A stretch of 43,469 nucleotides of DNA from Candidatus Parcubacteria bacterium (GTDB taxonomy: Bacteria; Patescibacteriota; Minisyncoccia; Phycocordibacterales; JAKAEA01), in NCBI GenBank assembly GCA_019661945.1, contig JAIFWI010000004.1, forward strand, positions 1 to 43,469. The letters are read 5' to 3'. The notes under the pieces were generated by a model. That model had not been told where the DNA came from and searched no databases. It saw nothing but the letters and a program-made list of their open reading frames with translations. Position 1 is the stretch's first letter, and every line of letters begins with the position of its first letter. Both the position numbers and the translations under genes were made by a program. Of this stretch, positions 20,409-43,469 are shown piece after piece.

Positions 20409-21285
20409 GCTTCTTATATATATAGTATACGCTATAGATGAGCAGTGCGCTGACAGCAATACACAGGAGAGTAAGTATAATCCAGGTCACCATTCCAAAT
20501 CCTTTTGGCGGGATTTTTTTTACGATCTCATTACCTTGATAATCAACGGCTTTGATAAAAACGAAACTGCCTCGTGATTGGTCTTTAAGAATGTAGGGAC
20601 TTTCGGTCACAGCCCATGCGTTTTGATCAGGTATATCGTCATCCGATTCTTGAACTTCGTACTGTTTCAAACCCGAAGCTTTATCCTGAGTTTGAAAGAG
20701 TAAAACCCATCTACCTTCATATAGAGATGGATCTCGGGTAATAATAGGTAGGAAATCTTCCGGCCGCTCACTATCAGAAACTTCGGTAATATCTTCATTC
20801 TTTTCTGAAGTAACAACAATAGTTTTTATCCTGAATACGGGCTTAGCATCTTCTGTTCCTTGGCCGTCATTCAAGAGTATTTTACTCTTTGTTGTGTCAA
20901 AAGAAATGCTGAGTGAGCCTGCTGTAGTCGCTTTTAAAACAAGCTGAACGATTCTACCCCCTTGTCCCTGAAATCCTCCAGGCACCACCCCAGATAATGA
21001 AATAGTACGATTTGCTGAATTAAACACTGGTTTCTCAACCCAGAGGCTAACAATAGAACCACTATCAAGAATACGTACCACCTCAGCTCCTTCATTAACA
21101 TGGATGCCAAGTTCAACAACATTAATTGATTGCTCTGCATCAAGGTAGATATCAACAACAAGTTCCTGGCCAATACCAAATGTATTTTCAGGTGTATTCA
21201 CATACACGGTTGAAGCATGCACAACTCGAAAACCTGCACTACACATCGTCACAACAATTACGATAAATAAAAGTATTTTTTTCAT
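20389..21285 (-). CDS. cohesin-domain protein with signal peptide and C-terminal TM
   Basis: NTPENTFGIGQELVVDIYLDAEQSINVVELGIHVNEGAEVVRIL...GRIVQLVLKATTAGSLSISF. Confidence 0.78.
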   Translation of the reverse strand: MKKILLFIVIVVTMCSAGFRVVHASTVYVNTPENTFGIGQELVVDIYLDAEQSINVVELGIHVNEGAEVVRILDSGSIVSLWVEKPVFNSANRTISLSGVVPGGFQGQGGRIVQLVLKATTAGSLSISFDTTKSKILLNDGQGTEDAKPVFRIKTIVVTSEKNEDITEVSDSERPEDFLPIITRDPSLYEGRWVLLFQTQDKASGLKQYEVQESDDDIPDQNAWAVTESPYILKDQSRGSFVFIKAVDYQGNEIVKKIPPKGFGMVTWIILTLLCIAVSALLIYSVYYIYKKHAKGTV

Positions 21286-21286
21286 A

Positions 21287-22606
21287 TTAGCCGGTCCAAT
21301 AGTAAGCCATGATACTAAAATCGACGAGATCTATCTTATTATCACCATTCAAGCGCTCTTTTTCTTTTTCAATAAATGCGCCGACTAATGGTCTCTTATA
21401 CCAGAATGCGGCAATAGAGAAATCTATAAGATTAACGAAACCATCATCATTTAAATCACCTTTCAAGAACTTTTTTATGCCCTTAGGAATATCTTTGTCG
21501 CCAACCTGAAAAGCTACACTTCGGCTGAAAGGACTGATCTCACCACCAACAATTGATTTTGATTTAGCCGAGTGCTGGCCAAGTTCAAGAACAGATGAAT
21601 CAAATTGATGCAAATATATTCCATCTTCATCAGCCTGGGTTTGAACAAAAAATTCTTGCTCGGAATTGACGGTAATAGTAACCTGGCTTTCTGAGGCCGC
21701 CTGGCCGAAAAATGTTACTGCACTGCCTTTTTTAACAAACTCTTTATCAACATCAATTGTTGGAGCTAAAAATATACCGGTAACTCTAACCGTCACTCCG
21801 GCCGTAAGGGTTACAGGAAATGTCAAAACACCGGAGCGGATGTCATTTTTATCCTCTCCATATATTGAAAAAAGATAACTTCCAGAACCCAAACCTGAGA
21901 GATCTATCTGAAAATGACTATCGGGGCTAGCATTAATCTTAGCCACAAGCTGACCATCTCGGAGAAGTGTCACAGGTGTGTCTGGATAAGCTCGACCACT
22001 AAAAATAACTGAAGCAGTTCCAAGTTGTTGACCACCTCCACCTCCACCTCCTCCACCGCCACCCCCTCCGCCTCCCGAAGGGGCTGTCGGTTGCGACGAA
22101 ACTTCTGATGATGTAGCAATAGCATTCCCTAAAGCATCATGAACTCGAATAACAAAATAATATGTTGTACCGGCTGTCAGCCCTGTTCGAGTGCTGGCCA
22201 AGACAGCTCCGACATTAGTAAATGAATATGGACCACCTGATACTTCGGCTTGACCGATATGATAACTACCGACGGTAAAACCAAGTCCGGCTGAGGCACT
22301 TGTCCAGGTCAATGCTACCTGATTAGCTCCTGGTGTAGCCGAAACAATGGGTGTCGTTACAAAAGGAAAGTAAAGGAAACCAGGATTAACTCCAAAATTT
22401 GTTATAGAACTTGTACCAAGAGCAGGCTGTGACAATACACCATACAATTGGTAATTAGTTGAAGTAGCATATACAGCCGGAAACATATGCGGTGTCGTTA
22501 CCTCAAAGTTAGTGGATTGTTGAGCTGAAAGAGCTGCTGGTATGAGAAGAGAAATAAATGCCAGTATCAGAGTATAGAAAATAACAGTGCTGATTTTTTG
22601 GAGCAT
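21287..22606 (-). CDS. secreted FnIII-like/poly-Gly/dockerin protein
   Basis: Signal peptide, FnIII-like segment, 15 consecutive Gly, C-terminal dockerin repeats GDLNDDGFVNLIDFSIAAFWY and LNGDNKIDLVDFSIMAYYW. Confidence 0.82.
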   Translation of the reverse strand: MLQKISTVIFYTLILAFISLLIPAALSAQQSTNFEVTTPHMFPAVYATSTNYQLYGVLSQPALGTSSITNFGVNPGFLYFPFVTTPIVSATPGANQVALTWTSASAGLGFTVGSYHIGQAEVSGGPYSFTNVGAVLASTRTGLTAGTTYYFVIRVHDALGNAIATSSEVSSQPTAPSGGGGGGGGGGGGGGGQQLGTASVIFSGRAYPDTPVTLLRDGQLVAKINASPDSHFQIDLSGLGSGSYLFSIYGEDKNDIRSGVLTFPVTLTAGVTVRVTGIFLAPTIDVDKEFVKKGSAVTFFGQAASESQVTITVNSEQEFFVQTQADEDGIYLHQFDSSVLELGQHSAKSKSIVGGEISPFSRSVAFQVGDKDIPKGIKKFLKGDLNDDGFVNLIDFSIAAFWYKRPLVGAFIEKEKERLNGDNKIDLVDFSIMAYYWTG

Positions 22607-27020: not shown

Positions 27021-27054
27021 AAAAAGAAAAGACCCCTGAGGGTCTTTTCTTTTT
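27021..27054. terminator. bidirectional intrinsic terminator
   Basis: AAAAAGAAAAGACCC ctga GGGTCTTTTCTTTTT. Confidence 0.9.
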
Positions 27055-28057
27055 ATTGAATTCGTCTCGAATCTACTTCTTCATAGATCATTCTTGAGAT
27101 ATCTTGAATAGTTTGTGCAAGTTTTTGAAAATTGTTGCCGCGAGTCATAATACAAATAAGATAGGGGTTTTGCGGATAGTACACAATACCGCAATCGTGA
27201 AGCTGATTATGATCTTTAGAATTAGGTATGCCTGAACGTTCACCATATTTATGAGCCACTACAATCTCAGCTGGAACACCAGCCTTGATGCCTTGATTAA
27301 AGGTTGTACTGGCAAGCAGAGACAGAGCCTGAGTTGATGCCTGCGTTGTGTTTAAAAAAGAAACATTATAGAGTGTCCTAAAAATCGAGGCATATGACTT
27401 CACGCTTATCGTTTCATCTCCTACATTCTGTGGATTCACAATACCAAGATCAAGAAGTGTCTGATATAAAACATTTTGTTTAGGATAGAGACTCTCTAAA
27501 TAACTCTTGAGCACTTCTGCAGATGCATTGTCAGAATAAGTAATCATTCGCTTCAAAAGATCATCAATACTGTAGGGCATTTGTTCCTTAATAGATTCAG
27601 GTGGAGTAATCCACTGAGCTCCCTCAACAATATGCTTGTCAGTGTGATACACCAATTTTGTATTCAGTAATTGTGGATTTTCTTCGGATAGCCGTAAGTA
27701 TGTTAATAAGACGGGTAATTTAAGCAAACTGGCCGGAATAAATTTTGCATCTTCTCTAATACCCATAGTTGGACCATTTTGAAGATCCCGAAAATAAACA
27801 GAAACTGCCGAAATATCACCCGCTTGAGTTTTGAGCTTTACAAACTCATCAATCTTACTTTTAAGAACAATATAATCATGCTTTTTAATCACCTGTTTCT
27901 CAGGAAGATCGGCAAGTTCACAGTTAACATAGGAAAATTCACCATCACTACATGAGGTCTTAGCTCGAGCAAGAAAAAATGACCAGGTTATTGCCCCGAT
28001 GGCAAAACCAATTACAAGCGAGATTGTAATAATAATTCGATTTCTTGAGTTACCCAT
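27053..28057 (-). CDS. class A beta-lactamase-like serine hydrolase
   Basis: FIPASLLKLPVLLTYL (SxxK), ITYSDNASAEVLKSYL (SDN), AHKYGERSG (KTG-like position). Confidence 0.87.
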   Translation of the reverse strand: MGNSRNRIIITISLVIGFAIGAITWSFFLARAKTSCSDGEFSYVNCELADLPEKQVIKKHDYIVLKSKIDEFVKLKTQAGDISAVSVYFRDLQNGPTMGIREDAKFIPASLLKLPVLLTYLRLSEENPQLLNTKLVYHTDKHIVEGAQWITPPESIKEQMPYSIDDLLKRMITYSDNASAEVLKSYLESLYPKQNVLYQTLLDLGIVNPQNVGDETISVKSYASIFRTLYNVSFLNTTQASTQALSLLASTTFNQGIKAGVPAEIVVAHKYGERSGIPNSKDHNQLHDCGIVYYPQNPYLICIMTRGNNFQKLAQTIQDISRMIYEEVDSRRIQ

Positions 28058-28106: not shown

Positions 28107-31100
28107 CTACTCGGAAACTGTAGCTGCCGGCACATCAGTAATTTCTACGACTGGTTCGGTAGGTTGTACTTCAGGTTCAGTTGCTTCATTGTCGACTTCT
28201 TCTACTGGAAGCTCCTCTTTGGCCGGCTCTTCTGTAATTTCTTCTTTAGGCTCTTCCTTCGGCTCTTCAGCAGGAGGTTTTTCTTCGACTACCGGCTGTT
28301 CGACTGGAGGCGGTGGAGGCACTACCACTGCTTCAGTTGAGGTACTTGTTTTTGCACCCTTCACGGCAAGCGCTATCCAGCTAAAGGTAATATCTTCAGG
28401 GGCTGCTTTATTCAGGGTAATCCTGAAACCATGAGTAGTCTTCTTAGAAATGAGGTGCCGAATATCATTGCCAAAGAGCGCATCTTCGAGAGCCTCATCA
28501 GTACTTGAAGCATTTTCTAGAGAAATAGAAGCATTGATAATTGGCTGCTCAAGATATTCTCGTCCAAAGGTGACATCAGCGAATTTCGCTCCCTTTTTAA
28601 TCAGAGCAAACCCAGCTGTATCAGTGGTAAAGTATGGCCGGCCGATGAAGATAAGATCTGATTGAAATGCGAGCATTTCGCCTCCGGTACCAATGCTATC
28701 TACTTCGAGACCATCCCAGATCGTAGCTCGGTTTATAGTCAAAGCTTTTCCTATTGGAGTTGAACTAGCAATTTGGGTCTCAAGCGCTGCAAGACTCGAC
28801 GCCAGATTTACATAGTGCTCTGAAGATGAAGCAAGTAATGCTTTTGTTTCATTAACAAATCCAAAGACTGAAGCAAGCTGGGCACTAACACTCATAGAGC
28901 TCGATGCAGTACTTGTAGCCAAGCTTTCCAATCTATCGGTCAGAGAGGAAATTGAATCTGTAAATATTTCAAGACCCTCTATTTGCTTAGCTACAACTTT
29001 ATTTGCGGTGACCGTGCCAGCAAAGACAGCATTACCATCTGCATCGAAGGTAATAACCGGTGTGCTTGATGCAGAAGCATCTTTAAATGTAGCTGACATG
29101 TCTTCCTTACCAGCCTTAGTTATAATCATCTTGCCACCTTGGGCAAGTTTTAGTTTTATATCATCTTCAACTGCTTCAATAGTATTTACTACCAATGTAT
29201 CAGTCAAAACTCTTGGTGTAATCAATTCAAGTCCGGCGACGACTCTGTCGGTAAAGACTTCAGAAATTGAACTTGAAGCTGTAATATTCTTTTTCTCAAC
29301 CATGAGCTGTGCAAGCATTATTCGGCCAATGTCTAAGCCTGCAGGTATATTATCGCTATCGATACCAGCTCGTTCCAAAAGAACATTCGTTCTAGCACCA
29401 CTTGAATATTGAGTTTGAACAAACATCATTACTTTTCCAGTTGAAGTAGCACCATCTGCTGGAGAAATATAATCTTCAAGAGCCGCACCAATAATTATGC
29501 CCGACTTCTCCATTTTAGCCGCTACGCCTGGAATAGAAGATGGACCAAGTAAATCTCCGGCTTTAATAGGACCGTTTTCCAAAGATACTTTCACTGGTGT
29601 TCGTCCAGCCAAGGCAATAGGTTGTGGATTTTTAGCATCCACACTTTCGCTAATCTTTCTACCCATAGTTATAGCCGGAGCAGTTGAGACAACACCAACC
29701 ACCTTGCTGTCAGGTCCAGCTTTCTCGAGTATTGAAATTTTTTGTAATCCCCATTCTGAGTCGTAATTAAATGAATCTTTACTGATTGAAACAATATCAC
29801 CAACTTCTACATCCTCTTTTGTTTCATACATTTCGGCAAGGTCAGATCCGTTTGTTCCCGAAAGTTCCCAGACGAGGACCATACCTCGAGCACCGGCCGA
29901 AGCAGCACCAGCAGATTCAGATCCACCACCACCTCCACCACCTGGAATTGCACCTGCTTGTCCAGCAGCACCAGTACCTCCAGTAGCAACTGCAGTACCT
30001 CCCATACCTCCCGCGCCTCCAAATGGTGCTCCACCACCATTACCTCCAGCAGCACCGTCGCCAGCTGCGGCACCAAGCGTGCTTCCTCCAGCTTGACCAG
30101 GAACAGTTATCGTACCACCAGAAGCTGTACCACCAGCACCACCAGTGGTACCGGAGTTTGTCTGGCCTGCACCACCGGTAAGAGTACCACCGCTCGCAGC
30201 AAAGCTTGAGGCATTTCCGTTAGCGCCGACAGTTGATGTTGCACCAATAGTCACAGTTACGTTTGCATTGACTGCCACTACTCCAGCGGCGTAACCACCA
30301 CCTCCACCACCTCCGTCAGAGTTGTTTGCGCCTGCAACACCTCCACCACCACCTCCTCCCCAAACTTCAACATAGACGTTATTAACGAAGGCTGGCTTTG
30401 TCCATGTACCGTTGACTGTATGAACTCGGACTGCTTCGACACCGAATCCAGCATCACCACTGCCACCCCCGCTAATACAAGTACCATTAACAGCATAACA
30501 GCCAGTTGTAATATTAAAGCCGACATCTGAGGTTGAAGTAGCTGAAGCATCAATATTCAAACCAGAGAGGGTCGTTGTACCGAAACCATTTCCGGCAACA
30601 GACAGGAATTTGACAGCATTTGAGGAACTGGCAACTTCAAAGACGGGGTTGGTCTGGAGAAGGTTACCTTGAACTGACAGTTTGGCATATGGACTTGTTG
30701 TGCCGATACCTACATTGTTCGCATTGGCTGTTGTTGTACCAATAACGATTGTTGTTGTTCCAGAAACGGCAGTGCCGTTTGCTCCGTAAAATGCAAGTTG
30801 TCCGAATACGCCAGTATTAACAGTACCTGATCCTCCTGAGCCACCAATACAAGTATTGCTAATAGCGTAACATCCTCCAGTAATATTCAAACCAACGTTT
30901 GAGGTTGAGGTTGCTGAACCGGAAATAGTTAAACCTGAAAGGGTTGTCGTGCCAAAACCTGTGGCAGAAACTGACAAAGCCGTAGTTGATGCTGAGGTAA
31001 CAACATTAAAAATAGAACCTGTTAATCCGCCCCATACAGTCAATTTTGATGTAGGTGAGCTCGTACCGATTGCAATACCGCTATTTTGAATACCACCTGA

Positions 31101-34100
31101 ACCATCTGACTGAGCATATACCGTCAACAATGGATTACCGTCAATTTGGGCTGAGTAACTTTGAACCGTGCTAGCTACAGCAGATGAAGTCACCGGCATA
31201 TCAATCCAGCTTAGAATACCACCATCACTATCAAATGTTGTGGCACCGAGAGCTAGATTATCAATACTTGTTAGTCCTGATGAAAAATCATGTCTCAAGG
31301 CTCCATTGCTGACATCAAGCCCACCGGCAAAGGTTGATGTCGCTGTTGTTGAGGTAGCGGTAATATTTCGGCCAACTATTTCTCCGACAACTGAGAGCTT
31401 GGCGTACGGTGAAGTCGTACCAATACCAACATTACCTGAAGAGTTAATTCTCATATACTCAGTCAGTGTTGCTAAGTTATCCGACAATGTACCAAATGTC
31501 AGTGATCCTGCAGTTGATGATGCATACCAGTGTTTAAGGTTTGAACCGGCACTGGTGTCAGTCAAAAGTAGCTGTGGAACAATACCGCTGGCTACTGAAA
31601 GCTTAGCATACGGTGTAGTTGTACCAATTCCAATCTTGCTTGCTGTTGAGGTAAACAGGGTTGATGTACCAACTACCGCTGTACCGTCTGCTGAATAGTA
31701 TGCAAACTGGCCCGTCGTACCTGAACTGACTGTGCCTGATCCGCCTGAACCTCCGACACAAGCACCTGAGATGGCGAAACAACCTCCCGTGAGATTAATG
31801 CCAACGTTTGAGGTTGATGTCGCAGAACCTGAAATAGTCAGACCGGAGAGAGTGGTGGTACCAAAACCATCTCCGGCTACCGTGAGAAATTTAACAGAAT
31901 TCGAGGAGCTCGCAACTTCAAAGACTGGGTTTGTCTGGAGAAGTGTACCCTGCACAGATAATTTTGCATATGGCGAAGAGGTGCCGATACCAATATTGTT
32001 GGCATTTGCAGTTGTAGTACCAATAACAATAGTGGTTGTTCCAGACACGGCAGTGCCGTTGGCTCCGTAGAATGCGAGTTGTCCAAAGATGCCCGTATTA
32101 ACAGTACCTGATCCGCCTGAACCTCCGACACAGGCACCTGAAATAGCGAAACAACCTCCCGTGAGATTAATGCCGTTAGCAAATGTTGATGAGGCATTTG
32201 AAGAGATGATATTAAGAGCATTTGCCTGAACTCCCCAAGCAAAAGTAGATGTAGCTGTCGTTGACGTAGCAACAAGATAATTAACTGTTGGCGACGTTGA
32301 TGCTGCTAATACACTTGTGCCGCCTGTTGAATAAAGCCAGCCTTGGCCAAATGATGTCGCTCCTGTTCCACCATAGAGAACTCCAATTGATGTCGTTGCT
32401 CCAACTACTCCATTTCGAGCATCAAGTGGTCCATTTAATGCGCCGATTGTTACACTACCGTTAAAAATACTCGAACCTGAAAATGTGTTGGTATCGGTGA
32501 ACGTATTAGCAGTGTAAAGTTTCGGAATCGTTGTTGATGCATGAATATAAGAATTAACTCGAGCATCAGTGTAATATAAATTTGTACCCTCAGGGATAGT
32601 AGTAGTAATAAGACCAAGAGATGTCGTCGCTACCTGAGTAATTGTGTTACCTGCCCCACCGATCAGAAGTTGGTTGTTAGTAATTGTCGATAATCCCGTT
32701 CCACCCTTCGTTGCAGCAAGAGTTCCTGAGATTGTTGCAAGTGTTGTTGTTGCCTGCCATGTTGGTACACCACTTACCAAGGCAAGGACAAAGCCATCTG
32801 TTCCAACTGATGTTGTGGCTAATGCTCCCGTACCATTACCAAGAAGAATACTATTTGACAGAATATTGCTCCAACCGGTACCTCCATACAAAACCCCAAT
32901 ACTTGTTGTAGCCGAGACTACTCCAGCATTTGCTTGAAGTGGACCATTGAGTGACCCGATAGTTACACCGCCGTTAAATATACTCGAGCCAGAAAATGTA
33001 TTGGTGTTTGTAAACGTATTAGTAGTATAGAGTTTTGGAATTGTTGTTGATCCGTGAATATATGCATTAACACGAGCGTCGGTGTAATAGAGATTTGTGC
33101 CTTCGGGGATAGTAGTGGTAATGAGTCCGAGAGATGTTGTCGCAACTTGAGTAATCGTGTTACCTGCTCCACCAATTAATAACTGATTGTTTGTAATCGT
33201 TGAAAGTCCGGTGCCACCTTTTGTAGCAGCTAATGTTCCTGAGATTGTTGCAAGTGTCGTCGTTGCCTGCCAAGTTGGCACGCCACTCACCAAGGCCAGA
33301 ACGAAACCATCGGTGCCGGCACTTGTTGTAGCTAAGGCACCTATACCATTACCTAATAAAATACTGTTGGCCTGAATATTATTCCAGCCTGTACCACCAT
33401 ATAATACTCCGATTGATGTTGTTGCTCCGACTACACCATTCCGAGCATCAAGCGGTCCATTTAATGCACCAATAGTTACACCACCATTAAAAATACTTGA
33501 GCCGGAGAATGTATTGGTGTTTGTAAATGTGTTGGCAGTATATGTTTTTGGAATCGTGGTTGAACCATGTATATATGAATTAACCCTGGCATCAGTATAG
33601 TAGAGATTTGTACCTTCAGGAATCGTTGTCGTGATGAGACCTAATGATGTTGTCGCAACCTGAGTAATAGTATTACCGGCACCTCCGATGAGAAGCTGGT
33701 TGTTGGTGATCGTTGATAATCCCGTTCCTCCCCGAGTTGCTGCTAATGTGCCGGTTGTGTCAGCTATTGCAATTCCCAATGTTGAAGTTGCCACGAGTGT
33801 ATAGCCACCTGTGCCATTACCTCGAAGAATTTCTCCAAAATTTGGCGCAGAGGTTAATCCTGTGCCTCCATATAATACTCCTATTGAGGAAGTTGCACTT
33901 ACTACACCTGCATTTGCTTGAATCGGGCCGTTTAGTGCACCAATTGTTACACCACCATTAAAAATACTCGAACCTGAAAATGTGTTGGTATTGGTGAACG
34001 TATTAGCAGTGTAAAGTTTCGGAATCGTTGTTGATGCATGAATATAAGAATTAACTCGAGCATCAGTGTAGTAAAGGTTTGTCCCTTCAGGAATTGTCGT

Positions 34101-37100
34101 GGTAATCAAACCTAAAGATGTTGTCGCTACTTGAGTAATGGTATTACCGGCACCACCAATAAGGAGTTGGTTATTTGTAATCGTTGAAAGTCCCGTTCCA
34201 CCCTTCGTTGCAGCAAGAGTTCCTGAGATTGTTGCAAGTGTCGTCGTTGCCTGCCAGGTTGGCACGCCACTCACCAAGGCCAGAACGAAACCATCGGTGC
34301 CAGCTGATGTCGTGGCCAGTGCTCCAGTACCATTTCCAAGTAAGATGCTATTCGCTTGGATATTGGTCCATCCTGTACCGCCATACAAAACTCCAATACT
34401 TGTCGTCGCTCCAACTACTCCATTCCGAGCATCAAGTGGTCCATTTAATGCACCAATAGTGAGCGTACCATTAAATATATTATTTCCACTGAAGGTGTTA
34501 TTGGTATATGTTTTTGGTATTGTTGTCGAGCCGTGGATAAATGTATTAACACGAGCATCCGTGTGATACAGATTTGTACCTTCAGGTATTGTAGTAGTAA
34601 TAAGACCAAGAGATGTGGTTGCTACCTGAGTTATTGTATTTCCAAGACCGCCAATTAATAACTGATTGTTTGTTATTGTAGATAATCCTGTACCACCTCG
34701 TGTTGCAGCCAAAGTTCCGGTTGTATCTGCAATGGCAATTCCCAATGTTGATGTTGCCACTAAAGAGTATCCTCCAGTATCATTACCGCGAAGAATTTCT
34801 CCAAAGTTTGGCGCAGAAGTTAATCCCGTTCCACCATAGAGTACTCCGATTGAAGTAGTAGCCGATACAACGCCAGCGTTCGCTTGGAGTGGACCGTTTA
34901 ATACGCCAATCGTTACACCACCATTAAATATACTCGAGCCAGAAAAAGTATTGGTGTTTGTAAATGTATTAGTAGTATAGAGTTTCGGAATAGTTGTTGA
35001 TGCATGAATGTACGCATTTACTCGAGCATCAGTGTAGTAGAGGTTTGTGCCTTCAGGAATGGTCGTGGTGATAAGCCCTAATGATGTTGTCGCAACCTGA
35101 GTAATAGTATTACCTGCCCCGCCGATCAAAAGTTGGTTGTTTGTTATCGTTGAAAGCCCGGTGCCGCCTCGAGTCGCTGGTAAAATGCCAGTAGTATCAG
35201 CTAGAGCTATTCCTAAGGTTGATGTTGCAACTAGTTCATAACCACCTGAACCATTTCCTCGTAAAATCTGGCCAAAGCTAGGAGTCGCATTTAAGCCTGT
35301 ACCTCCAAAGGCAACACCTATAGTATCACCCTGCCAGATACCACCAACAACCGTACCAACATTTGATTGAGTTGCTGTAAATCGTGGGAAGGTCGAAGTT
35401 GCTGTTGTCGTTGCAGTAAAGTATGCGCCAACTATTTCACCAACTACAGAAAGTTTTGCATAGGGTGATGTTGTACCAATACCGACATTACCGCTAATAT
35501 AGCTATTACCAATAACTTCAAGAGCTGCCAATGATGTCGTAGCTGAGGCACCAACCAGCACTTGATTTGTGGTTGTGGCCAATCTAATACCCGAACCATT
35601 AAAGAATGTCCAATTAGTATCAGAACCGCTGCCGCTGCCAGATCCACAATTCGAACCAGTACCGGTCAGAAGTCCGCCAGTGCTAAATTGTGCACAACCA
35701 GTTTGGCCGATAACATTAAATGAACCTGATACTGCGAGATTGGTAGAAGTAGCATTCGATGAAGTGGCATTTGTAAATATTGCTGTTGATGCTGAACTTG
35801 CTCCAATAGGAGTATTGTTAATTGTTCCACCTGAAATAGTAAGATCATTAGCAACTCGTGCATCCGCCAATGTTCCTGTCCATGTTGGCGTAAAGGTATG
35901 TGTTGAGCCTGAAGAAGTAATTGTTAATCCAATATTCGTGTCAGTTGATGTGGCAAATGTCTGACTTGCAGCAGTAAGCGCTGGTGAAAATTCCGCACCA
36001 AGTGATGTAATCGCTGTGGTCACTAACCCCAGCGACGACGTGGCGGTTAAGGTATATCCTCCTAGTGCATTACCCAGGAGAAGCTGACCATATGTTGGTG
36101 CAGTGCTGAGGCCGGTTCCACCATATAAAACTCCGATACTTGTTGTAGCGGAAACGACTCCCGCATTAGCTTGAAGTGGTCCATTCAATGCACCAATAGT
36201 TACTCCACCGTTAAAAATACTTGGGCCAGAGAATGTGTTGGTATTCGTAAATGTATTCGAAGTGTACAATTTTGGAATTGTAGTCGAACCATTGATGTAC
36301 GCATTAACTCGGGCATCCGTATAGTAGAGATTTGTACCCTCAGGAATTGTTGTAGTGATGAGACCTAATGAGGTTGTAGCGATCTGAGTAATAGTATTAC
36401 CTGCCCCGCCAATCAAAAGTTGGTTGTTGGTGATGGTCGATAATCCTGTTCCACCTCGAGTTGCAGCTAAGGTACCAGTTGTATCACCAATGGCTATTCC
36501 CAAGGTTGATGTTGCAACCAGAGTGTATCCACCAGTACCATTACCTCGGAGAATTTCTCCGAAGTTTGGTGCTGAAGTTAAACCAGTGCCACCATACAAA
36601 ACTCCAATTGATGTCGTTGCTCCAACTACTCCATTTCGAGCATCAAGTGGTCCATTTAATACACCGATAGTCACACCTCCATTAAAAATACTTGCGCCAG
36701 AAAACGTATTGGTGTTTGTGAAAGTATTAGCTGTGTAAAGCTTCGGAATCGTTGTTGACCCGTGAATGTAAGAATTGACTCGGGCGTCAGTGTAGTAAAG
36801 ATTTGTACCTTCGGGAATTGTTGTGGTAATGAGTCCAAGAGAGGTAGTCGCAACTTGGGTAATTGTGTTACCTGCCCCGCCAATCAAAAGTTGGTTGTTC
36901 GTGATAGTCGAAAGTCCGGTGCCACCTTTTGTAGCAGCTAATGTTCCCGAGATTGTTGAAAGTGTTGTGGTTGCTTGCCAGGTTGGTACACCACTCACTA
37001 ATGCAAGTACAAACCCATCGGTGCCGGCACTTGTTGTAGCTAATGCTCCCGTGCCATTTCCAAGCAAAATGCTATTCGCTAGGATATTTGTCCATCCAGT

Positions 37101-40007
37101 ACCGCCGTAGAGCACTCCAATTGATGTTGTTGCTGTCACGACTCCAGCATTTGCCTGAAGTGGGCCATTAAGTGTACTAATGGTTAAACCACCATTTAAA
37201 ATACTTGAACCTAAAAACGTATTGGTATTGGTGAACATATTTGAAGTATATAATTTCGGAATTGTGGTAGAACTGTGAATGTAAGAATTAACGCGAGCGT
37301 CAGTGTAGTAAAGGTTTGTCCCTTCAGGAATTGTCGTGGTAATCAAACCTAAAGATGTTGTCGCTACTTGAGTAATAGTATTTCCTAATCCACCAATCAG
37401 TAACTGATTGTTCGTGATGGTTGAAAGTCCTGTACCACCTCGCGTTGCTGCTAATGTTCCGGTTGTGTCAGCAATGGCAATTCCCAAGGTTGATGTTGCT
37501 ACCAGAGTGTATCCGCCACTACCATTTCCCCGAAGAATTTCTCCAAAGTTTGGCGCAGAAGTTAGTCCTGTTCCCCCATAGAGTACTCCGATTGAAGTCG
37601 TTGCTGTAACGACTCCAGCGTTTGCTTGAAGGGGACCGTTGAGTGAGCCAATAGTTACACCTCCGTTGAAAATACTCGAGCCAGAAAATGTATTGGTGTT
37701 TGTAAATGTATTTGAAGTGTACAGTTTTGGAATTGTCGTTGATGCATGGATGTAAGAATTGACTCGAGCATCGGTGTAGTAGAGATTCGTGCCTTCGGGA
37801 ATCGTTGTCGTAATGAGTCCGAGAGATGTTGTTGCAACCTGAGTAATAGTATTGCCTGGACCACCAATCAGTAATTGATTTTGGGTGATTGTAGATAATC
37901 CCGTACCACCTCGTGTTGCGGCCAAGGTTCCTGACCACGTTGGGGTAAAGGTATGGGTCGATCCAGAGGATACTATATTAAGGCCGATGTTTGTATCAGA
38001 GGTCGTGGCAAAGGTTTGGGTCGAATTAGTCAGACCATTAAGTGAAGTAATGGCGCTTGTTGGTAAACCAAGAGAGGATGTTGCTGTTAATGTATAACCA
38101 CCCAAAGAATTTCCGACTAGTATCTGTCCTAAATTGGGTGCTGAAGTTAAACCAGTGCCACCGTATAAGACACCAATTGAGGAAGTTGCGCTCACTACTC
38201 CTGCGTTTGCCTGCAATGGACCATGTAATGTTCCGACTGTCAGTCCACCGTTGAAAATGCCAGCGCCTGAGAATGTATTTGTATTGCTAAATGTATTGGC
38301 AGTATATGTTTTAGGAATTGTGGATGAACCTTGAATAAAGTCGTTGACTCGAGTTGGGGTATAGTAGAGATTATTAACACCTTCGGCTAAATTGTTTGTT
38401 GATTTGGTGGTTAACCAATAATCAGCTGATGTGGTCGAGTATGAGTTTGCTAAATAATAGGTTCCGTCAGCTCCATCAAAGGTTCCTGTCCAATTTCCAC
38501 TTGTATCAACTGTTAATGCCCCACCTGAAATCGTCAGACCAGCCCCAGTAATGTCTGTAATGTACTCAGAGCCAACGCCAAGAACTGTTGTCCTAAATGT
38601 AGTTGAAGTCGCATTTGTTGTCGTAGCATTTATAGCAATAAGATTTGCTAATGTTGTCGATCCTGTAAGATTAAGATTGCCGGTAATTGAAACATTACCG
38701 CCAAATTTTGAATTACCGACAACTTCAAAAATATTTCCGGTTGTAGTTGTGGCGCTCGTGCCAATAAGAACGACGTAACCAGTATCTGATGGATAAATTG
38801 ACAAGCTGTCACTTGATGTCGCCCAAGCACCTGCGCCACCACCACCGCTCGTTAAATCTGAACCCCAGGTTGGCACGCCACCGGAAATTTTAAGCACTGT
38901 TCCATTAGAACCTCGAGCTAATCTGGTTAATGAAGTAGTTGTATCAGCATACAAAAGATCACCAACAGCATACACAGTCTGACCAGTGCCGCCTCGAATC
39001 GCGTTTAGTGTTCCTAAAGTATCAGCAAGATTAATACCCAGAGTTGATGTCGCAATTTGAATGATAGTATTGCCTGGACCGCCGATCAGTAATTGATTTT
39101 GGGTGATTGTAGATAATCCCGTACCGCCAAAATCAGCAGCGATGGTGCTACCCTGCCAGGTACCGCCAACAACCGTACCAACATTTGATTGAGTTGCAGC
39201 CAGAAGTGGAAACGTTGATGTCGCTGTCGTTGAAGTTGCCGTAAATGTCGAGCTTGTAACATGACCACCGACTGCAAGGTTACTATACAAAGTTGTATCG
39301 CCTGTTATTTGTAATGTAGAAGATCCAAAAAGACCGCCATTTTGATTTACATAAAAGAGTGGATTTCCTGTCGAACTTTGAATTCTAAAAAGATGCGCTG
39401 CTTGGCCAAGAGCTGCTTGAATCGTAAGCCCAACAGCATTTGTTGACGTCGCCTGAATTGAGACAACAGAATTATTAAGCACTGTGGTTGTACCGAATGT
39501 TGATGAATCAGTACCACGGACTGATCGCGCCAGCTCGGCAAATGTTGAGGCGGTTATGAGCTGGCGTGGTGCAAGCGTCTCAAATGTTACATTGTCATCA
39601 GAAACTTCAATTTGAAGATAGATTGTGTCATTAGTGCCAAAATCATAGTCCAAGGTATTAGGATATCCGTTTGCGGTATCACCAATATTTACATTAAATA
39701 CACCCTGTCGAATTGTGGTAGTGACCGTGCCTGGTGCTGAGGATGGCCAAAGTTGAGTGCCACCAGGAACTGTCGGACTATTCCACAAGGAAAATTTAAA
39801 ATATGCCGGCGCGCCTGATCCTCCCAAAAGATTTCCATTTTCATCAGTCAGGCGACCTTGATAACTTAAAATTTTTGGCACACCGGCTGCAGCTTCAGCA
39901 ATGGTTGGCAGAAGTGGAGAAAAAGGAGAAATTAAAATCGAAATAATCAGAGCAATAGAAAGAACTTTCGATATACCAAATCGATAGTAGATATTTCTAA
40001 ATCTCAT
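28107..40007 (-). CDS. giant (~3966-aa) secreted modular surface protein, tail-fibre/adhesin-like
   Basis: Signal peptide; KILSYQGRLTDENGNLLGG; 10 full IPEGTNLYYTDARVN... modules; GIGTTSPYAKLSV repeats; Gly-rich domain; SDLAEMYE region; Glu/Pro-rich tail. SD AGGAG-N7-ATG places the start at 40007, 18 nt inside the tracked ORF. Confidence 0.9.
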   Translation of the reverse strand: MRFRNIYYRFGISKVLSIALIISILISPFSPLLPTIAEAAAGVPKILSYQGRLTDENGNLLGGSGAPAYFKFSLWNSPTVPGGTQLWPSSAPGTVTTTIRQGVFNVNIGDTANGYPNTLDYDFGTNDTIYLQIEVSDDNVTFETLAPRQLITASTFAELARSVRGTDSSTFGTTTVLNNSVVSIQATSTNAVGLTIQAALGQAAHLFRIQSSTGNPLFYVNQNGGLFGSSTLQITGDTTLYSNLAVGGHVTSSTFTATSTTATSTFPLLAATQSNVGTVVGGTWQGSTIAADFGGTGLSTITQNQLLIGGPGNTIIQIATSTLGINLADTLGTLNAIRGGTGQTVYAVGDLLYADTTTSLTRLARGSNGTVLKISGGVPTWGSDLTSGGGGAGAWATSSDSLSIYPSDTGYVVLIGTSATTTTGNIFEVVGNSKFGGNVSITGNLNLTGSTTLANLIAINATTTNATSTTFRTTVLGVGSEYITDITGAGLTISGGALTVDTSGNWTGTFDGADGTYYLANSYSTTSADYWLTTKSTNNLAEGVNNLYYTPTRVNDFIQGSSTIPKTYTANTFSNTNTFSGAGIFNGGLTVGTLHGPLQANAGVVSATSSIGVLYGGTGLTSAPNLGQILVGNSLGGYTLTATSSLGLPTSAITSLNGLTNSTQTFATTSDTNIGLNIVSSGSTHTFTPTWSGTLAATRGGTGLSTITQNQLLIGGPGNTITQVATTSLGLITTTIPEGTNLYYTDARVNSYIHASTTIPKLYTSNTFTNTNTFSGSSIFNGGVTIGSLNGPLQANAGVVTATTSIGVLYGGTGLTSAPNFGEILRGNGSGGYTLVATSTLGIAIADTTGTLAATRGGTGLSTITNNQLLIGGLGNTITQVATTSLGLITTTIPEGTNLYYTDARVNSYIHSSTTIPKLYTSNMFTNTNTFLGSSILNGGLTISTLNGPLQANAGVVTATTSIGVLYGGTGWTNILANSILLGNGTGALATTSAGTDGFVLALVSGVPTWQATTTLSTISGTLAATKGGTGLSTITNNQLLIGGAGNTITQVATTSLGLITTTIPEGTNLYYTDARVNSYIHGSTTIPKLYTANTFTNTNTFSGASIFNGGVTIGVLNGPLDARNGVVGATTSIGVLYGGTGLTSAPNFGEILRGNGTGGYTLVATSTLGIAIGDTTGTLAATRGGTGLSTITNNQLLIGGAGNTITQIATTSLGLITTTIPEGTNLYYTDARVNAYINGSTTIPKLYTSNTFTNTNTFSGPSIFNGGVTIGALNGPLQANAGVVSATTSIGVLYGGTGLSTAPTYGQLLLGNALGGYTLTATSSLGLVTTAITSLGAEFSPALTAASQTFATSTDTNIGLTITSSGSTHTFTPTWTGTLADARVANDLTISGGTINNTPIGASSASTAIFTNATSSNATSTNLAVSGSFNVIGQTGCAQFSTGGLLTGTGSNCGSGSGSGSDTNWTFFNGSGIRLATTTNQVLVGASATTSLAALEVIGNSYISGNVGIGTTSPYAKLSVVGEIVGAYFTATTTATSTFPRFTATQSNVGTVVGGIWQGDTIGVAFGGTGLNATPSFGQILRGNGSGGYELVATSTLGIALADTTGILPATRGGTGLSTITNNQLLIGGAGNTITQVATTSLGLITTTIPEGTNLYYTDARVNAYIHASTTIPKLYTTNTFTNTNTFSGSSIFNGGVTIGVLNGPLQANAGVVSATTSIGVLYGGTGLTSAPNFGEILRGNDTGGYSLVATSTLGIAIADTTGTLAATRGGTGLSTITNNQLLIGGLGNTITQVATTSLGLITTTIPEGTNLYHTDARVNTFIHGSTTIPKTYTNNTFSGNNIFNGTLTIGALNGPLDARNGVVGATTSIGVLYGGTGWTNIQANSILLGNGTGALATTSAGTDGFVLALVSGVPTWQATTTLATISGTLAATKGGTGLSTITNNQLLIGGAGNTITQVATTSLGLITTTIPEGTNLYYTDARVNSYIHASTTIPKLYTANTFTNTNTFSGSSIFNGGVTIGALNGPIQANAGVVSATSSIGVLYGGTGLTSAPNFGEILRGNGTGGYTLVATSTLGIAIADTTGTLAATRGGTGLSTITNNQLLIGGAGNTITQVATTSLGLITTTIPEGTNLYYTDARVNSYIHGSTTIPKTYTANTFTNTNTFSGSSIFNGGVTIGALNGPLDARNGVVGATTSIGVLYGGTGWNNIQANSILLGNGIGALATTSAGTDGFVLALVSGVPTWQATTTLATISGTLAATKGGTGLSTITNNQLLIGGAGNTITQVATTSLGLITTTIPEGTNLYYTDARVNAYIHGSTTIPKLYTTNTFTNTNTFSGSSIFNGGVTIGSLNGPLQANAGVVSATTSIGVLYGGTGWSNILSNSILLGNGTGALATTSVGTDGFVLALVSGVPTWQATTTLATISGTLAATKGGTGLSTITNNQLLIGGAGNTITQVATTSLGLITTTIPEGTNLYYTDARVNSYIHASTTIPKLYTANTFTDTNTFSGSSIFNGSVTIGALNGPLDARNGVVGATTSIGVLYGGTGATSFGQGWLYSTGGTSVLAASTSPTVNYLVATSTTATSTFAWGVQANALNIISSNASSTFANGINLTGGCFAISGACVGGSGGSGTVNTGIFGQLAFYGANGTAVSGTTTIVIGTTTANANNIGIGTSSPYAKLSVQGTLLQTNPVFEVASSSNSVKFLTVAGDGFGTTTLSGLTISGSATSTSNVGINLTGGCFAISGACVGGSGGSGTVSSGTTGQFAYYSADGTAVVGTSTLFTSTASKIGIGTTTPYAKLSVASGIVPQLLLTDTSAGSNLKHWYASSTAGSLTFGTLSDNLATLTEYMRINSSGNVGIGTTSPYAKLSVVGEIVGRNITATSTTATSTFAGGLDVSNGALRHDFSSGLTSIDNLALGATTFDSDGGILSWIDMPVTSSAVASTVQSYSAQIDGNPLLTVYAQSDGSGGIQNSGIAIGTSSPTSKLTVWGGLTGSIFNVVTSASTTALSVSATGFGTTTLSGLTISGSATSTSNVGLNITGGCYAISNTCIGGSGGSGTVNTGVFGQLAFYGANGTAVSGTTTIVIGTTTANANNVGIGTTSPYAKLSVQGNLLQTNPVFEVASSSNAVKFLSVAGNGFGTTTLSGLNIDASATSTSDVGFNITTGCYAVNGTCISGGGSGDAGFGVEAVRVHTVNGTWTKPAFVNNVYVEVWGGGGGGGVAGANNSDGGGGGGGYAAGVVAVNANVTVTIGATSTVGANGNASSFAASGGTLTGGAGQTNSGTTGGAGGTASGGTITVPGQAGGSTLGAAAGDGAAGGNGGGAPFGGAGGMGGTAVATGGTGAAGQAGAIPGGGGGGGSESAGAASAGARGMVLVWELSGTNGSDLAEMYETKEDVEVGDIVSISKDSFNYDSEWGLQKISILEKAGPDSKVVGVVSTAPAITMGRKISESVDAKNPQPIALAGRTPVKVSLENGPIKAGDLLGPSSIPGVAAKMEKSGIIIGAALEDYISPADGATSTGKVMMFVQTQYSSGARTNVLLERAGIDSDNIPAGLDIGRIMLAQLMVEKKNITASSSISEVFTDRVVAGLELITPRVLTDTLVVNTIEAVEDDIKLKLAQGGKMIITKAGKEDMSATFKDASASSTPVITFDADGNAVFAGTVTANKVVAKQIEGLEIFTDSISSLTDRLESLATSTASSSMSVSAQLASVFGFVNETKALLASSSEHYVNLASSLAALETQIASSTPIGKALTINRATIWDGLEVDSIGTGGEMLAFQSDLIFIGRPYFTTDTAGFALIKKGAKFADVTFGREYLEQPIINASISLENASSTDEALEDALFGNDIRHLISKKTTHGFRITLNKAAPEDITFSWIALAVKGAKTSTSTEAVVVPPPPPVEQPVVEEKPPAEEPKEEPKEEITEEPAKEELPVEEVDNEATEPEVQPTEPVVEITDVPAATVSE
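32340..38400 (-). repeat. coding repeat array in the giant gene
   Basis: 10 IPEGTNLYYTDARVNxYI..TTIPKLYT..NTFTNTNTFSG modules plus one diverged AEGVNNLYYTPTRVNDFI copy. Confidence 0.92.
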
Positions 40008-40660: not shown

Positions 40661-41953
40661 ATGGATAGTAGTGGAACTCTGTGGGATCTTGGTTTTGAAA
40701 CCATTAAGGAGCTTGAAGTTGAGCAAGGCATTCTGGCATCAGGCAAAGAAGAAATCTTTGGATGTATTTTTGGCCGAGATTCACTCATCACCAGCCTCAA
40801 ATTACTTCGGGTCTATGAAAATACAAAAGATCCGTACTTTTTAGCTCTGGTTAAAAAAATTTTACAAAATCTTGTAGCTCTTCAGGGCACCGAAGTCAAT
40901 ATTGAAAGCGGTGAAGAGCCCGGCAAGTGTATTCATGAATTCCGACCGTCAAATCATGAGCACTTAACCCGTGATCTAGAAATTCCTTGGTATTTGTACC
41001 CTGATAACATGATGCGTAACTATGACTCGGTTGATAGCACGCCGCTTTTTCTCATTACCCTCTACCGTTATTTTCAAGCCAGTGCCGACAATGCCTTTAT
41101 GCAAGAAACCCTGCCGAATGTGAAGTTGGGTTTAAATTGGCTAGTAACGTACGGCGATAAAAATGGCGATGGTTTTGTAGACTACGGCTTAAATCCTGAG
41201 CGAAAATTCGGCGGTTTGGCAACACAAAGCTGGATGGACAGCGGCGAATCTGTTTTTCATGAAGATGGCAGTGCTGTTGCCTTCCCCATTGCACCCGTCG
41301 AAGCTCAAAGTTATACTTTTTTAGCTCTGCGATTGTGGTCTGACTATTTCAAAAATTCTGACAATATACACAGCGATGCCCTAAAACAGCGCGCCGATAA
41401 ACTTAAGGCTCACTTCAATGAAGTATTTGTGACCGCAAATGACCAAGGTGTATTTCTGGCTACAGGAGTTGATGGCAATGGCAAGCTTTTAACATCGGTC
41501 CGCTCAAGCATGGGTCATTGCATTTGGTCATCACTTGAAAAAAGCCGTGACGGCGTTCAAGAATCAATCATTAAAGATGAGTTCATTCCAAAAATTATTG
41601 AACGATTGATGGCTCCTGATATGTTCGCGCCTAAAGCTGGCATCCGCACTTTAAGTTCGCTGTCAGTTTCATACTCTCCGAATAGTTATCACAATGGTTC
41701 AATCTGGCCGCATGATACAAGCATTATCGCTGAGGGTTTTGATCTTTTCGGCTACCACGCTGAGGCTAAGCAAGTTCGAGAAGCATTGCTGTATGCTTTG
41801 ACTCACTTCAATAGTCCAATCGAACTTTTCGTATACGAAGAAGATTACTCGGAGTATTGTTCTCCGCATGGTCAAAAAGCATGTCTCAAGCAAGCCTGGA
41901 GCGCTGCCACTCTTCTCAAGGAATTGGCTTCAACTCGAACAATTACTTCTTAA
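40661..41953 (+). CDS. glycogen-debranching / (alpha/alpha)6-barrel glycoside hydrolase-type protein
   Basis: FGRDSLITSLKLL, YDSVDSTPLFLITLYRY, GLATQSWMDSGES, PIAPVEAQSYTFLALR, SYHNGSIWPHDTSIIAEGF. Confidence 0.82.
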   Translation: MDSSGTLWDLGFETIKELEVEQGILASGKEEIFGCIFGRDSLITSLKLLRVYENTKDPYFLALVKKILQNLVALQGTEVNIESGEEPGKCIHEFRPSNHEHLTRDLEIPWYLYPDNMMRNYDSVDSTPLFLITLYRYFQASADNAFMQETLPNVKLGLNWLVTYGDKNGDGFVDYGLNPERKFGGLATQSWMDSGESVFHEDGSAVAFPIAPVEAQSYTFLALRLWSDYFKNSDNIHSDALKQRADKLKAHFNEVFVTANDQGVFLATGVDGNGKLLTSVRSSMGHCIWSSLEKSRDGVQESIIKDEFIPKIIERLMAPDMFAPKAGIRTLSSLSVSYSPNSYHNGSIWPHDTSIIAEGFDLFGYHAEAKQVREALLYALTHFNSPIELFVYEEDYSEYCSPHGQKACLKQAWSAATLLKELASTRTITS

Positions 41954-43469
41954 GATGTCGGTGTATTGTTGCCGCTCTCAGATTTCAAATCAAGGTGGCT
42001 ATTAATATCAATCAGGTTATTCAAAAATTTACTGGCCCATTGATATACATTATTTTTTGAGACAGCCGCTTGAAGTTTTTCCATGCGCTGTTTCCTTTCA
42101 TCCTTGGGCATTTCAAGAGCGCGTTTAATAGTATCGGCTAACTGCTCAATGTCATATGGATTAACAATAAGTGCATCTTGTAATTCATCAGCTGCTCCTG
42201 TTTGCTCTGAAAGAATTAAGGCACCATCAGCCGGTCCTGCCGTGACATATTCTTTAGCAACGAGGTTCATACTCTCAGCCAATGATGTAACCATCATCAG
42301 GTTGGCGCTCTTATACAAACTATAGAGCTCTGTTGGTGTTTGAGTTTCTTTAATGACGTGAATAGGCTGCCAATTTGAGGTGGCATATTTAAAATTGACT
42401 GTTTCAATCAAGGTTTCAATTTCTTGATCAAGCTGTTCGTATCGTTTCAAAATAGTGCGCGATGGCTGTAAAACATTAATATGCACAAATCTTTCCTGAT
42501 ATTCTGGATATTTTTCCAAAAAGCGGTCAATAGCCTTTATACGTTCAACAACTCCCTTAATGTAATCAATACGCTCGACACCAAATGAAAGAAATTCATA
42601 TCGACCAGTGACAATTTGTTTAATGTGAGATTTGCCAAAACGCTTCGATTTCTGAGAAGCATACGAAATGGCCTGATAATCAATACTAATTGGAAAATGA
42701 CGAACATAGGTTACTCGATCATTATAGGTAATGGTTAAATTATCAAAATCAACTTTGGCCTCAAGTGTTTTTGAGACCGAAGTTAAAAAGTTTCGACAAT
42801 GTGAGTGCCGGCTGAAACCAATAAGCTGATTGCCGAGCATTCCTTCCAATACTTGCCTATCCCATGGAAAAATCCGAAAAATTTCTGCCACCGGCCAGGG
42901 AACATGCCAAAAATGTCCGACAATAATGTCTGGATATTTTTCCCGAAGCATTTGTGGTACTAAGGCTAAGTGATAGTCATGAATCCAAACTACTACTTTT
43001 TCTTTATGGTCAGGATCAATTTCTTTGAGCACAGCGTCGGCATACTGTTGATTGACAGCCGTGTACGCTTCCCAATCACCTTGTCTGAAAATCGGCCGTT
43101 CAAAAACAGAGTGGCACAGCGGCCAGAGGGCTTCGTTACACAAGCCATAATACCAACCCAATAAATTTCTTTTGGTAATCCATAAGCGCTTCAGGGTGTA
43201 TTGCCTACGTCCAGGCGGCATTTTTATTTTATCTTCTTCATTAACAACTTCTTTGTCAGAGGCACCGCGGCCATGAGCAATCCAGAGTCCGCCATTCAAC
43301 TTTATGATCGGTTCCATAGCGGTAATCAGTCCGCCGGCACCTCGAACAACCGTAATTTTATCTTTGTAATAACCGTGAGTGTACGGCTCAGCTGATGAAA
43401 CCACAATAAGTTTATAATCGCCGATGCGATCTCCCAACAATTTTTCAATGACTTTTTTTGCCGGTGACA
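41950..43469 (-). CDS. otsA: alpha,alpha-trehalose-phosphate synthase (GT20), 5' end outside the window
   Basis: GGLWIAHGRG, VWIHDYHLALVPQMLREKYPDIIVGHFWHVPWP, SFGVERIDYIKG, LAESMNLVAKEYV. The tracked M is a TTG; the frame stays open to the window end (...SPAKKVIEKLLGDRIG). Confidence 0.93.
   Translation of the reverse strand, partial: SPAKKVIEKLLGDRIGDYKLIVVSSAEPYTHGYYKDKITVVRGAGGLITAMEPIIKLNGGLWIAHGRGASDKEVVNEEDKIKMPPGRRQYTLKRLWITKRNLLGWYYGLCNEALWPLCHSVFERPIFRQGDWEAYTAVNQQYADAVLKEIDPDHKEKVVVWIHDYHLALVPQMLREKYPDIIVGHFWHVPWPVAEIFRIFPWDRQVLEGMLGNQLIGFSRHSHCRNFLTSVSKTLEAKVDFDNLTITYNDRVTYVRHFPISIDYQAISYASQKSKRFGKSHIKQIVTGRYEFLSFGVERIDYIKGVVERIKAIDRFLEKYPEYQERFVHINVLQPSRTILKRYEQLDQEIETLIETVNFKYATSNWQPIHVIKETQTPTELYSLYKSANLMMVTSLAESMNLVAKEYVTAGPADGALILSEQTGAADELQDALIVNPYDIEQLADTIKRALEMPKDERKQRMEKLQAAVSKNNVYQWASKFLNNLIDINSHLDLKSESGNNTPTS

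What the first reader, a model, noticed from the sequence alone, without database searches (positions are those of the whole stretch)
28107..40007. Giant tail-fibre-like surface protein taking 27% of the window
Domain order: signal peptide; SYQGRLTDENGNLLGG module; 10+ LYYTDARVN/GGTG modules; GIGTTSPYAKLSV repeats; Gly-rich domain; SDLAEMYE...VVGVVSTAPAITMG segment; coiled region; acidic-Pro tail with no C-terminal TM or LPXTG. YGGTG, LYYTDARVN and GIGT..P..KL.V motifs resemble phage/bacterial fibre proteins, so it may form a long trimeric fibre for host-cell contact.
Basis: partly seen in the sequence, partly recalled or inferred. Interest (0 to 1): 0.68.

Follow-up and report, generated by a model that had tools for sequence, protein, structure and literature searches.

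The report
Giant phage-like surface fibre protein
A tiny bacterium, probably one that lives attached to other cells, devotes about 1.4% of its genome to one huge secreted protein built from virus tail-fibre parts, including a relative of the self-cutting folding helper of phage phi29, and it probably forms a long three-stranded fibre for gripping other cells.

Summary
In detail: one uninterrupted ORF on the minus strand (28107-40007, 3966 aa, about 396 kDa), with every named feature present. The fibre reading is well supported and can be sharpened. (1) The SDLAEMYE segment (aa 3386-3540) is related to the self-cleaving intramolecular chaperone of phage phi29 gp12 (Peptidase_G2 type). A confident AlphaFold model (pLDDT 92) has phi29 gp12 as its two best PDB matches. 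SD-x-x-E aligns with gp12 S691/D692/E695, and D and E are kept in all 32 relatives checked. It is not S74. (2) The same domain ends virion proteins of jumbo and Campylobacter phages. (3) A Pfam Gly_rich_2 fibre domain directly precedes the predicted cut. (4) The NLYYTDARV modules are common in viral fibre-like ORFs. (5) The GIGT..P..KLSV region matches Bdellovibrio MAT fibre Bd2133, and the N-domain is related to the MAT N-domain. The giant is an extreme member of an unannotated, cross-phylum fibre family: in a class sample the N-domain occurs in 44 of 286 genomes and the C-domain in 87. Elsewhere the chaperone is C-terminal; here further domains and a Pro-rich tail follow. Trimerisation, cleavage, surface display and host contact are inferred, not shown. 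Rated a new variant of a known kind.

The parts
28107..40007 (-). Giant fibre-like protein gene, 3966 aa, ATG at 40007, stop at 28107-28109
   Evidence: Single open frame with RBS-like AGGAG upstream
39891..40007 (-). Signal peptide, aa 1-39 (AEA/A cleavage-like site)
   Evidence: Hydrophobic core, best KD19 window 2.31 at aa 15; the only TM-like segment
39504..39890 (-). N-terminal beta-rich domain, aa 40-168 (SYQGRL...)
   Evidence: 44 of 286 class genomes; many other phyla; BALO MAT N-domains after iteration
32292..38504 (-). Stalk with 11 LYYTDARVN/GGTG modules, aa 502-2572
   Evidence: Module alignment and shuffles; motif abundant in viral fibre-like ORFs
30456..32210 (-). GIGT..P..KLSV beta-helix-like region, aa 2600-3184
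   Evidence: 8ond Bd2133 E 8e-9; PHROG tail fibre 1.6e-7
29847..30470 (-). Glycine-rich domain, aa 3180-3387, ending at the predicted cut
   Evidence: PF21722 Gly_rich_2 E 3.4e-9, above cutoff; phrog_863 4.5e-21
29388..29852 (-). phi29 gp12/Peptidase_G2-like intramolecular chaperone, aa 3386-3540; predicted scissile S3388-D3389 at 29843/29844
   Evidence: AF2 pLDDT 92.2; Foldseek best hits 3SUC and 3GQH; hhalign to gp12 91%; D and E kept in 32 of 32 relatives
28773..29387 (-). Post-chaperone helical (coiled) region, aa 3541-3745
   Evidence: Conserved in several class relatives; low-confidence helices
28338..28775 (-). C-terminal beta domain, aa 3745-3890 (PYFTTDTAGFA...FSWIALAVK)
   Evidence: Conserved in class relatives; no PDB or Pfam match; fold unresolved
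28110..28352 (-). Acidic Pro/Glu-rich tail, aa 3886-3966
   Evidence: Sequence; Pro-rich tails are common in relatives

Best explanation
It is a secreted, phage-tail-fibre-like giant adhesin of an ultra-small, probably epibiotic bacterium. Shown by homology: a secretion signal; an N-terminal domain shared with mosaic adhesive trimer (MAT)-type proteins; a stalk of phage-fibre modules; a Gly-rich fibre domain; and a phi29-gp12-type intramolecular chaperone. Inferred mechanism: three exported chains are nucleated at the C-terminal chaperone and helical region and wind into a trimeric beta stalk. The chaperone may then cut between S3388 and D3389 and free the Gly-rich domain as the distal sticky tip. 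The N-domain would sit near the cell, and the fibre, roughly 0.13-0.24 um long by scaling from Bdellovibrio MATs, would reach and grip another cell. Fibre homology is firm; trimerisation is likely; cleavage, polarity and target are less certain.
For: The only strong PDB sequence hit is MAT fibre Bd2133, E 8e-9. The C-domain model has pLDDT 92, and its two best PDB fold hits are phi29 gp12, 3SUC and 3GQH. PF11962 finds 6 of 26 relatives, best 2.8e-5, and independently lands on a C-domain relative, G025. hhalign aligns SDLAE with SDFAE of gp12. The same domain ends the PA5oct virion protein gp359 (detected by ESI-MS/MS) and a Campylobacter phage protein. Gly_rich_2 directly precedes the cut here, and three relatives are Gly-rich at the same place. 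At least 120 viral contigs carry NLYYTDARV; 148 of 149 copies lie in frames of at least 150 aa and 52 in frames that also hold GGTG. The N-domain plus C-domain architecture recurs in Thermodesulfovibrionia and Phycisphaerae proteins of 618-1010 aa.
Against: The window's own C-domain does not reach PF11962. The fold match has TM 0.55-0.58 and high rmsd, and phage head-cement proteins share the fold at slightly weaker E-values. P1 serine is kept in only 9 of 32 relatives. The chaperone is not C-terminal here: 578 aa follow the cut, and part of that region is conserved, so cleavage may not release a disposable cap. The post-chaperone model is poor (pLDDT 49). No trimer model or experiment was possible.
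Confidence: 0.7

Rival explanations
1. The chaperone-like domain no longer cleaves; it is a permanent trimerisation or cement-like module inside an uncut fibre, and the C-terminal beta domain plus Pro-rich tail is the working tip or the wall-associated end.
For: 578 aa follow the D-x-x-E site and part is conserved in relatives; P1 is variable; the fold is shared with non-cleaving phage cement proteins.
Against: Asp and Glu are invariant in 32 of 32 class relatives and kept in several other phyla and in phages, more than a purely structural role would need.
Confidence: 0.35
2. It is a tail fibre of an integrated or degraded phage, not a cellular surface protein.
For: Domains are of phage-fibre type.
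Against: It has a signal peptide and lies among cellular genes (MutS/MutL-type, glycosyltransferases, beta-lactamase-like, GT20) with no phage gene recognised. Relatives are widespread in the class and other phyla with signal-like N-termini.
Confidence: 0.05
3. A secreted, low-complexity Thr/Gly-rich matrix or S-layer-like protein that is not a discrete trimeric fibre.
For: Thr 16.6%, Gly 14.8% and few charged residues; no LPXTG or TM anchor.
Against: Ordered modules keep 82% protein identity while codons have diverged to 72% DNA identity; chaperone and fibre homologies.
Confidence: 0.12
4. The fibre is real but serves biofilm or surface attachment or self-aggregation rather than host-cell contact.
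For: Named relatives occur in many phyla, including ones not known to be predators or epibionts.
Against: The small genome (861 kb) suggests host dependence; the closest studied proteins act at predator-prey contact (PMC10769870).
Confidence: 0.3

Closest known systems
Bdellovibrio mosaic adhesive trimer (MAT) fibres, e.g. Bd2133 (8OND) and Bd3182 (PMC10769870)
   Same: Signal peptide, then a related beta-rich N-domain; GIGT..P..KL-type beta-helix modules; mosaic of phage-fibre parts; GGTG also in a Bdellovibrio relative (L107).
   Different: About four times longer; G2-type instead of S74 or NS74 ending; 11 LYYTDARVN modules; extra post-chaperone domains and Pro-rich tail. No C-domain was found in three BALO genomes.
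phi29 gp12 pre-neck appendage, Peptidase_G2 chaperone (PF11962; 3SUC, 3GQH)
   Same: Fold, SD-x-x-E site, GV(I/V)S core, position just after the fibre body.
   Different: Cellular secreted protein; chaperone not C-terminal; below the Pfam cutoff; no enzymatic spike domain.
Jumbo phage PA5oct virion protein gp359 and Campylobacter phage fibre-like proteins
   Same: Same YADLAE...GVxS...PVKV domain (hhalign 99.4% for PA5oct).
   Different: The domain ends the protein, which is only 400-478 aa, with no signal peptide.
Phage fibre glycine-rich domain (Gly_rich_2, PF21722; phrog_863)
   Same: Above Pfam cutoff over about 180 aa.
   Different: Sits inside a cellular giant protein, directly before the chaperone.
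Giant surface proteins of the CPR predator Vampirococcus lugosii (PMC8080830)
   Same: Very large surface proteins of a reduced-genome attached bacterium, proposed for host attachment.
   Different: Reported domains are PKD, DUF11, fibronectin and WD40; no phage-fibre type was described in the passages read.

Membership tests
phi29 gp12-type intramolecular chaperone (Peptidase_G2) | Fold of the gp12 C-terminal fragment | tested here: met
   pLDDT 92 model; 3SUC E 2.5e-4 and 3GQH E 3.6e-4 are the two best of 350,542 chains, TM 0.55-0.58; cement proteins share the fold
phi29 gp12-type intramolecular chaperone (Peptidase_G2) | Scissile-site motif S-D-x-x-E (gp12 S691, D692, E695; catalytic role recalled from memory) | tested here: met
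   S3388/D3389/E3392; hhalign alignment; D and E in 32 of 32 relatives, S in 9 of 32
phi29 gp12-type intramolecular chaperone (Peptidase_G2) | Match to PF11962 above cutoff | tested here: not met
   No hit for the window protein; 6 of 26 relatives match, best 2.8e-5; genome hits below cutoff
phi29 gp12-type intramolecular chaperone (Peptidase_G2) | C-terminal position of the chaperone | tested here: not met
   578 aa follow the predicted cut; C-terminal in phage and most other-phylum relatives
phi29 gp12-type intramolecular chaperone (Peptidase_G2) | Trimerises and self-cleaves | not testable with these tools
   Needs expression and mutants
Mosaic adhesive trimer (MAT) superfamily | Conserved ~130-aa beta-rich domain directly after the signal peptide | tested here: inconclusive
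   BALO N-domains found only after iteration and mostly over the first half (L136 9e-8, L115 1e-4, L093 3e-4)
Mosaic adhesive trimer (MAT) superfamily | Trimeric beta-helix stalk with capping-loop motif | tested here: inconclusive
   8OND sequence match E 8e-9; VGIGTTSPYAKL present, but a strict regex for the published consensus finds none; trimer not modelled
Mosaic adhesive trimer (MAT) superfamily | Surface display on the cell | not testable with these tools
   Signal peptide only
Peptidase_S74 fibre (S74-MAT, T5 pb1, K1F) | SDxxxK catalytic motif | tested here: not met
   Residue at +5 is M here and never K in 32 relatives; no S74 Pfam hit
Trimeric autotransporter adhesin | C-terminal membrane anchor | tested here: not met
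   No TM-like segment after the signal; Pro-rich tail

The most novel reading that the evidence does not exclude
Ultra-small, host-dependent bacteria carry a widespread, unannotated class of giant fibres that are folded by a phage phi29-type chaperone and then self-cut to expose a glycine-rich adhesive tip. This would be a host-recognition apparatus parallel to, and distinct from, the S74-type fibres of predatory Bdellovibrio.
Probability: 0.35. Interest if true: 0.8.

Novelty: new variant of a known kind. Interest (0 to 1): 0.6.

Why it matters
How host-dependent ultra-small bacteria recognise their hosts is largely open. This gives a concrete candidate with a testable mechanism: a predicted cut site, a predicted tip and a predicted trimer. 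It links the fibres of these bacteria to those of Bdellovibrio and of phages. It also defines two domains (N-domain and G2-like C-domain) that Pfam and NCBIfam do not recognise in this protein. Such genes seem often broken in draft genomes: 15 of the 30 closest N-domain genes (the window's own included) run into a contig end within 1.5 kb, so the family is probably under-counted.

Tried and rejected
Whole-protein Pfam and NCBIfam scans gave nothing usable; Pfam's Gly_rich_2 match appeared only when segments were scanned alone. S74 was rejected by motif. A tblastn of one 156-aa module against named phages found nothing; the viral link came from the short motif scan. The post-chaperone model (pLDDT 49) was too poor for a fold search, and phmmer of that domain and of the Gly-rich domain found no PDB relative. 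Sigma-70-like promoter sites were below the shuffled expectation. No paper found describing this family in Patescibacteria, within a library of open papers only.

Full report
OBSERVATION. The finding is one ORF on the minus strand, 28107-40007, 3966 aa, with ATG at 40007 behind an AGGAG and no internal stop. It is 27.4% of the window. The window is the whole of contig C22 of an 861-kb genome in 41 contigs, 97% complete, so the gene is about 1.4% of the genome. The repeats are far beyond chance: 10 LY[YH]TDARVN against 0 in 500 shuffles, 25 GGTG against 2.1, and 5 GIGT-type motifs against 0. Module proteins are 82% identical at the median but their DNA only 72%. Excluding the divergent first module, matched residues share the same codon in 47% of cases against 38% expected from codon usage. 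The repeats are therefore probably old and held at protein level. The longest exact repeat is 78 bp.

C-TERMINAL CHAPERONE. The SDLAEMYE segment recurs in 87 of 286 genomes sampled from the class, in open frames up to 6621 aa. Pfam's Peptidase_G2 does not hit the window protein, but it hits 6 of 26 relatives (best 2.8e-5). Searched on its own over 35 genomes, it lands on G025, at the place the C-domain search had also found. A profile of the family has phi29 gp12 as its best PDB sequence hit, though only at E 0.37. hhalign pairs SDLAE with gp12 SDFAE, whose S is residue 691 (91%). AlphaFold2 with the 26-row alignment gives pLDDT 92.2. Foldseek's two best PDB hits are 3SUC and 3GQH, both phi29 gp12; phage capsid cement proteins with a related fold follow. 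Best hits in predicted viral structures include preneck appendage proteins. D and E are kept in all 32 class relatives inspected; the serine before them is not. One relative (L010) reads DVGE and was missed by the first search pattern only for its G. That gp12 is cut between S691 and D692, with D692 and E695 needed, is my recollection. [quoted passage not shown]

PHAGE AND CROSS-PHYLUM RELATIVES. The same domain ends PA5oct gp359, a virion protein seen by mass spectrometry, and a Campylobacter phage protein (hhalign 99.4% for PA5oct). A scan with the GIGT part of Bd2133 found relatives in many phyla. Two of these proteins carry the N-domain and the C-domain together: L070 (Thermodesulfovibrionia, 618 aa) and L126 (Phycisphaerae, 1010 aa). 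In these and in phages the chaperone is usually the last domain. In the window's class it is generally followed by further sequence, which in several relatives is a conserved helical region and beta domain, and often by a Pro-rich tail.

N-DOMAIN. Aa 40-168 recur in 44 of 286 class genomes and in other phyla. Predatory Bdellovibrio and relatives appear only after HMM iteration, mostly over the first half. That is suggestive of common origin with the MAT N-domain (PMC10769870) but not conclusive. Within the same family of genomes one of four others has a weak match, so the gene is patchy.

STALK AND GLY-RICH DOMAIN. 148 of 149 copies lie in open frames of 150 aa or more, typically as T-D-x-x-E-G-S/T-NLYYTDARV, and 52 lie in frames that also hold GGTG. 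By rough estimate about one chance match is expected in the collection. Aa 3180-3387 match Gly_rich_2 above cutoff and phrog_863, and end exactly at the predicted cut. Three relatives are Gly-rich at the same place.

MECHANISM. Shown: domain homologies, order and conservation. Likely: trimer formation, because the closest studied proteins are trimers. Inferred: self-cleavage after S3388, exposure of the Gly-rich tip, N-domain near the cell, length 0.13-0.24 um (scaled from about 0.4-0.7 A per residue in Bd2133 and Bd3182), host contact. The 578 aa after the cut are the main difficulty: they may be a cap, a second tip or an attachment part.

IDENTITY OF THE ORGANISM. No tool names it. The small genome, the class sample of 0.5-1.3 Mb genomes and similar proteins in named Parcubacteria-type genomes suggest Patescibacteria; this is inference.

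KNOWN OR NEW. The kind, a bacterial mosaic fibre built from phage-fibre parts, is known from Bdellovibrio MATs. New here are the G2-type chaperone in place of S74, the size, the module array and the extra C-terminal region, in a group where giant surface proteins have been noted (PMC8080830) but, in the papers I could search, not of this type.

Noticed in passing
10847-12283 +, 19449-20459 -, 20389-21285 -, 21287-22606 -: A Cohesin-domain protein (PF00963 1.2e-9), two similar-looking membrane proteins without a Pfam hit, and a secreted Gly-rich protein ending in a dockerin-like repeat (PF00404 9e-4, below cutoff): a possible cohesin-dockerin surface set in a very small genome.
   Followed up: partly
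aa 1438/1454, 2619/2626, 2743/2750, 3046/3053, 3170/3177 of the giant protein (within 30476-35696 -): All ten cysteines form five close pairs (mostly C-x6-C); relatives show similar CVDNDGGC hairpins before the chaperone. This suggests disulphide hairpins in an exported fibre.
   Followed up: partly
L005-L009, L012-L015, L018, L022, L023, L028-L030: 15 of the 30 closest N-domain genes run into a contig end within 1.5 kb downstream, sometimes in genomes of two or three contigs: repeat-rich fibre genes may break assemblies.
   Followed up: yes
27053-28057 -: Beta-lactamase-family protein (PF13354 1.3e-34) directly downstream of the giant gene on the same strand.
   Followed up: no
40661-41953 + and 41950-43440 -: Amylo-alpha-1,6-glucosidase-like protein and GT20 (trehalose-6-phosphate synthase-like) converging next to each other.
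   Followed up: no
L111 (Candidatus Pacearchaeota contig): A Bd2133-like GIGT fibre region on a contig assigned to an ultra-small archaeon; it could be transfer or contamination.
   Followed up: no
L140 (G108) 6516 aa and L141 (G021) 4995 aa: Even longer class relatives with the same C-domain but 37 and 8 GIGT motifs and no LYYTDARVN modules: stalk modules seem to be swapped freely.
   Followed up: partly
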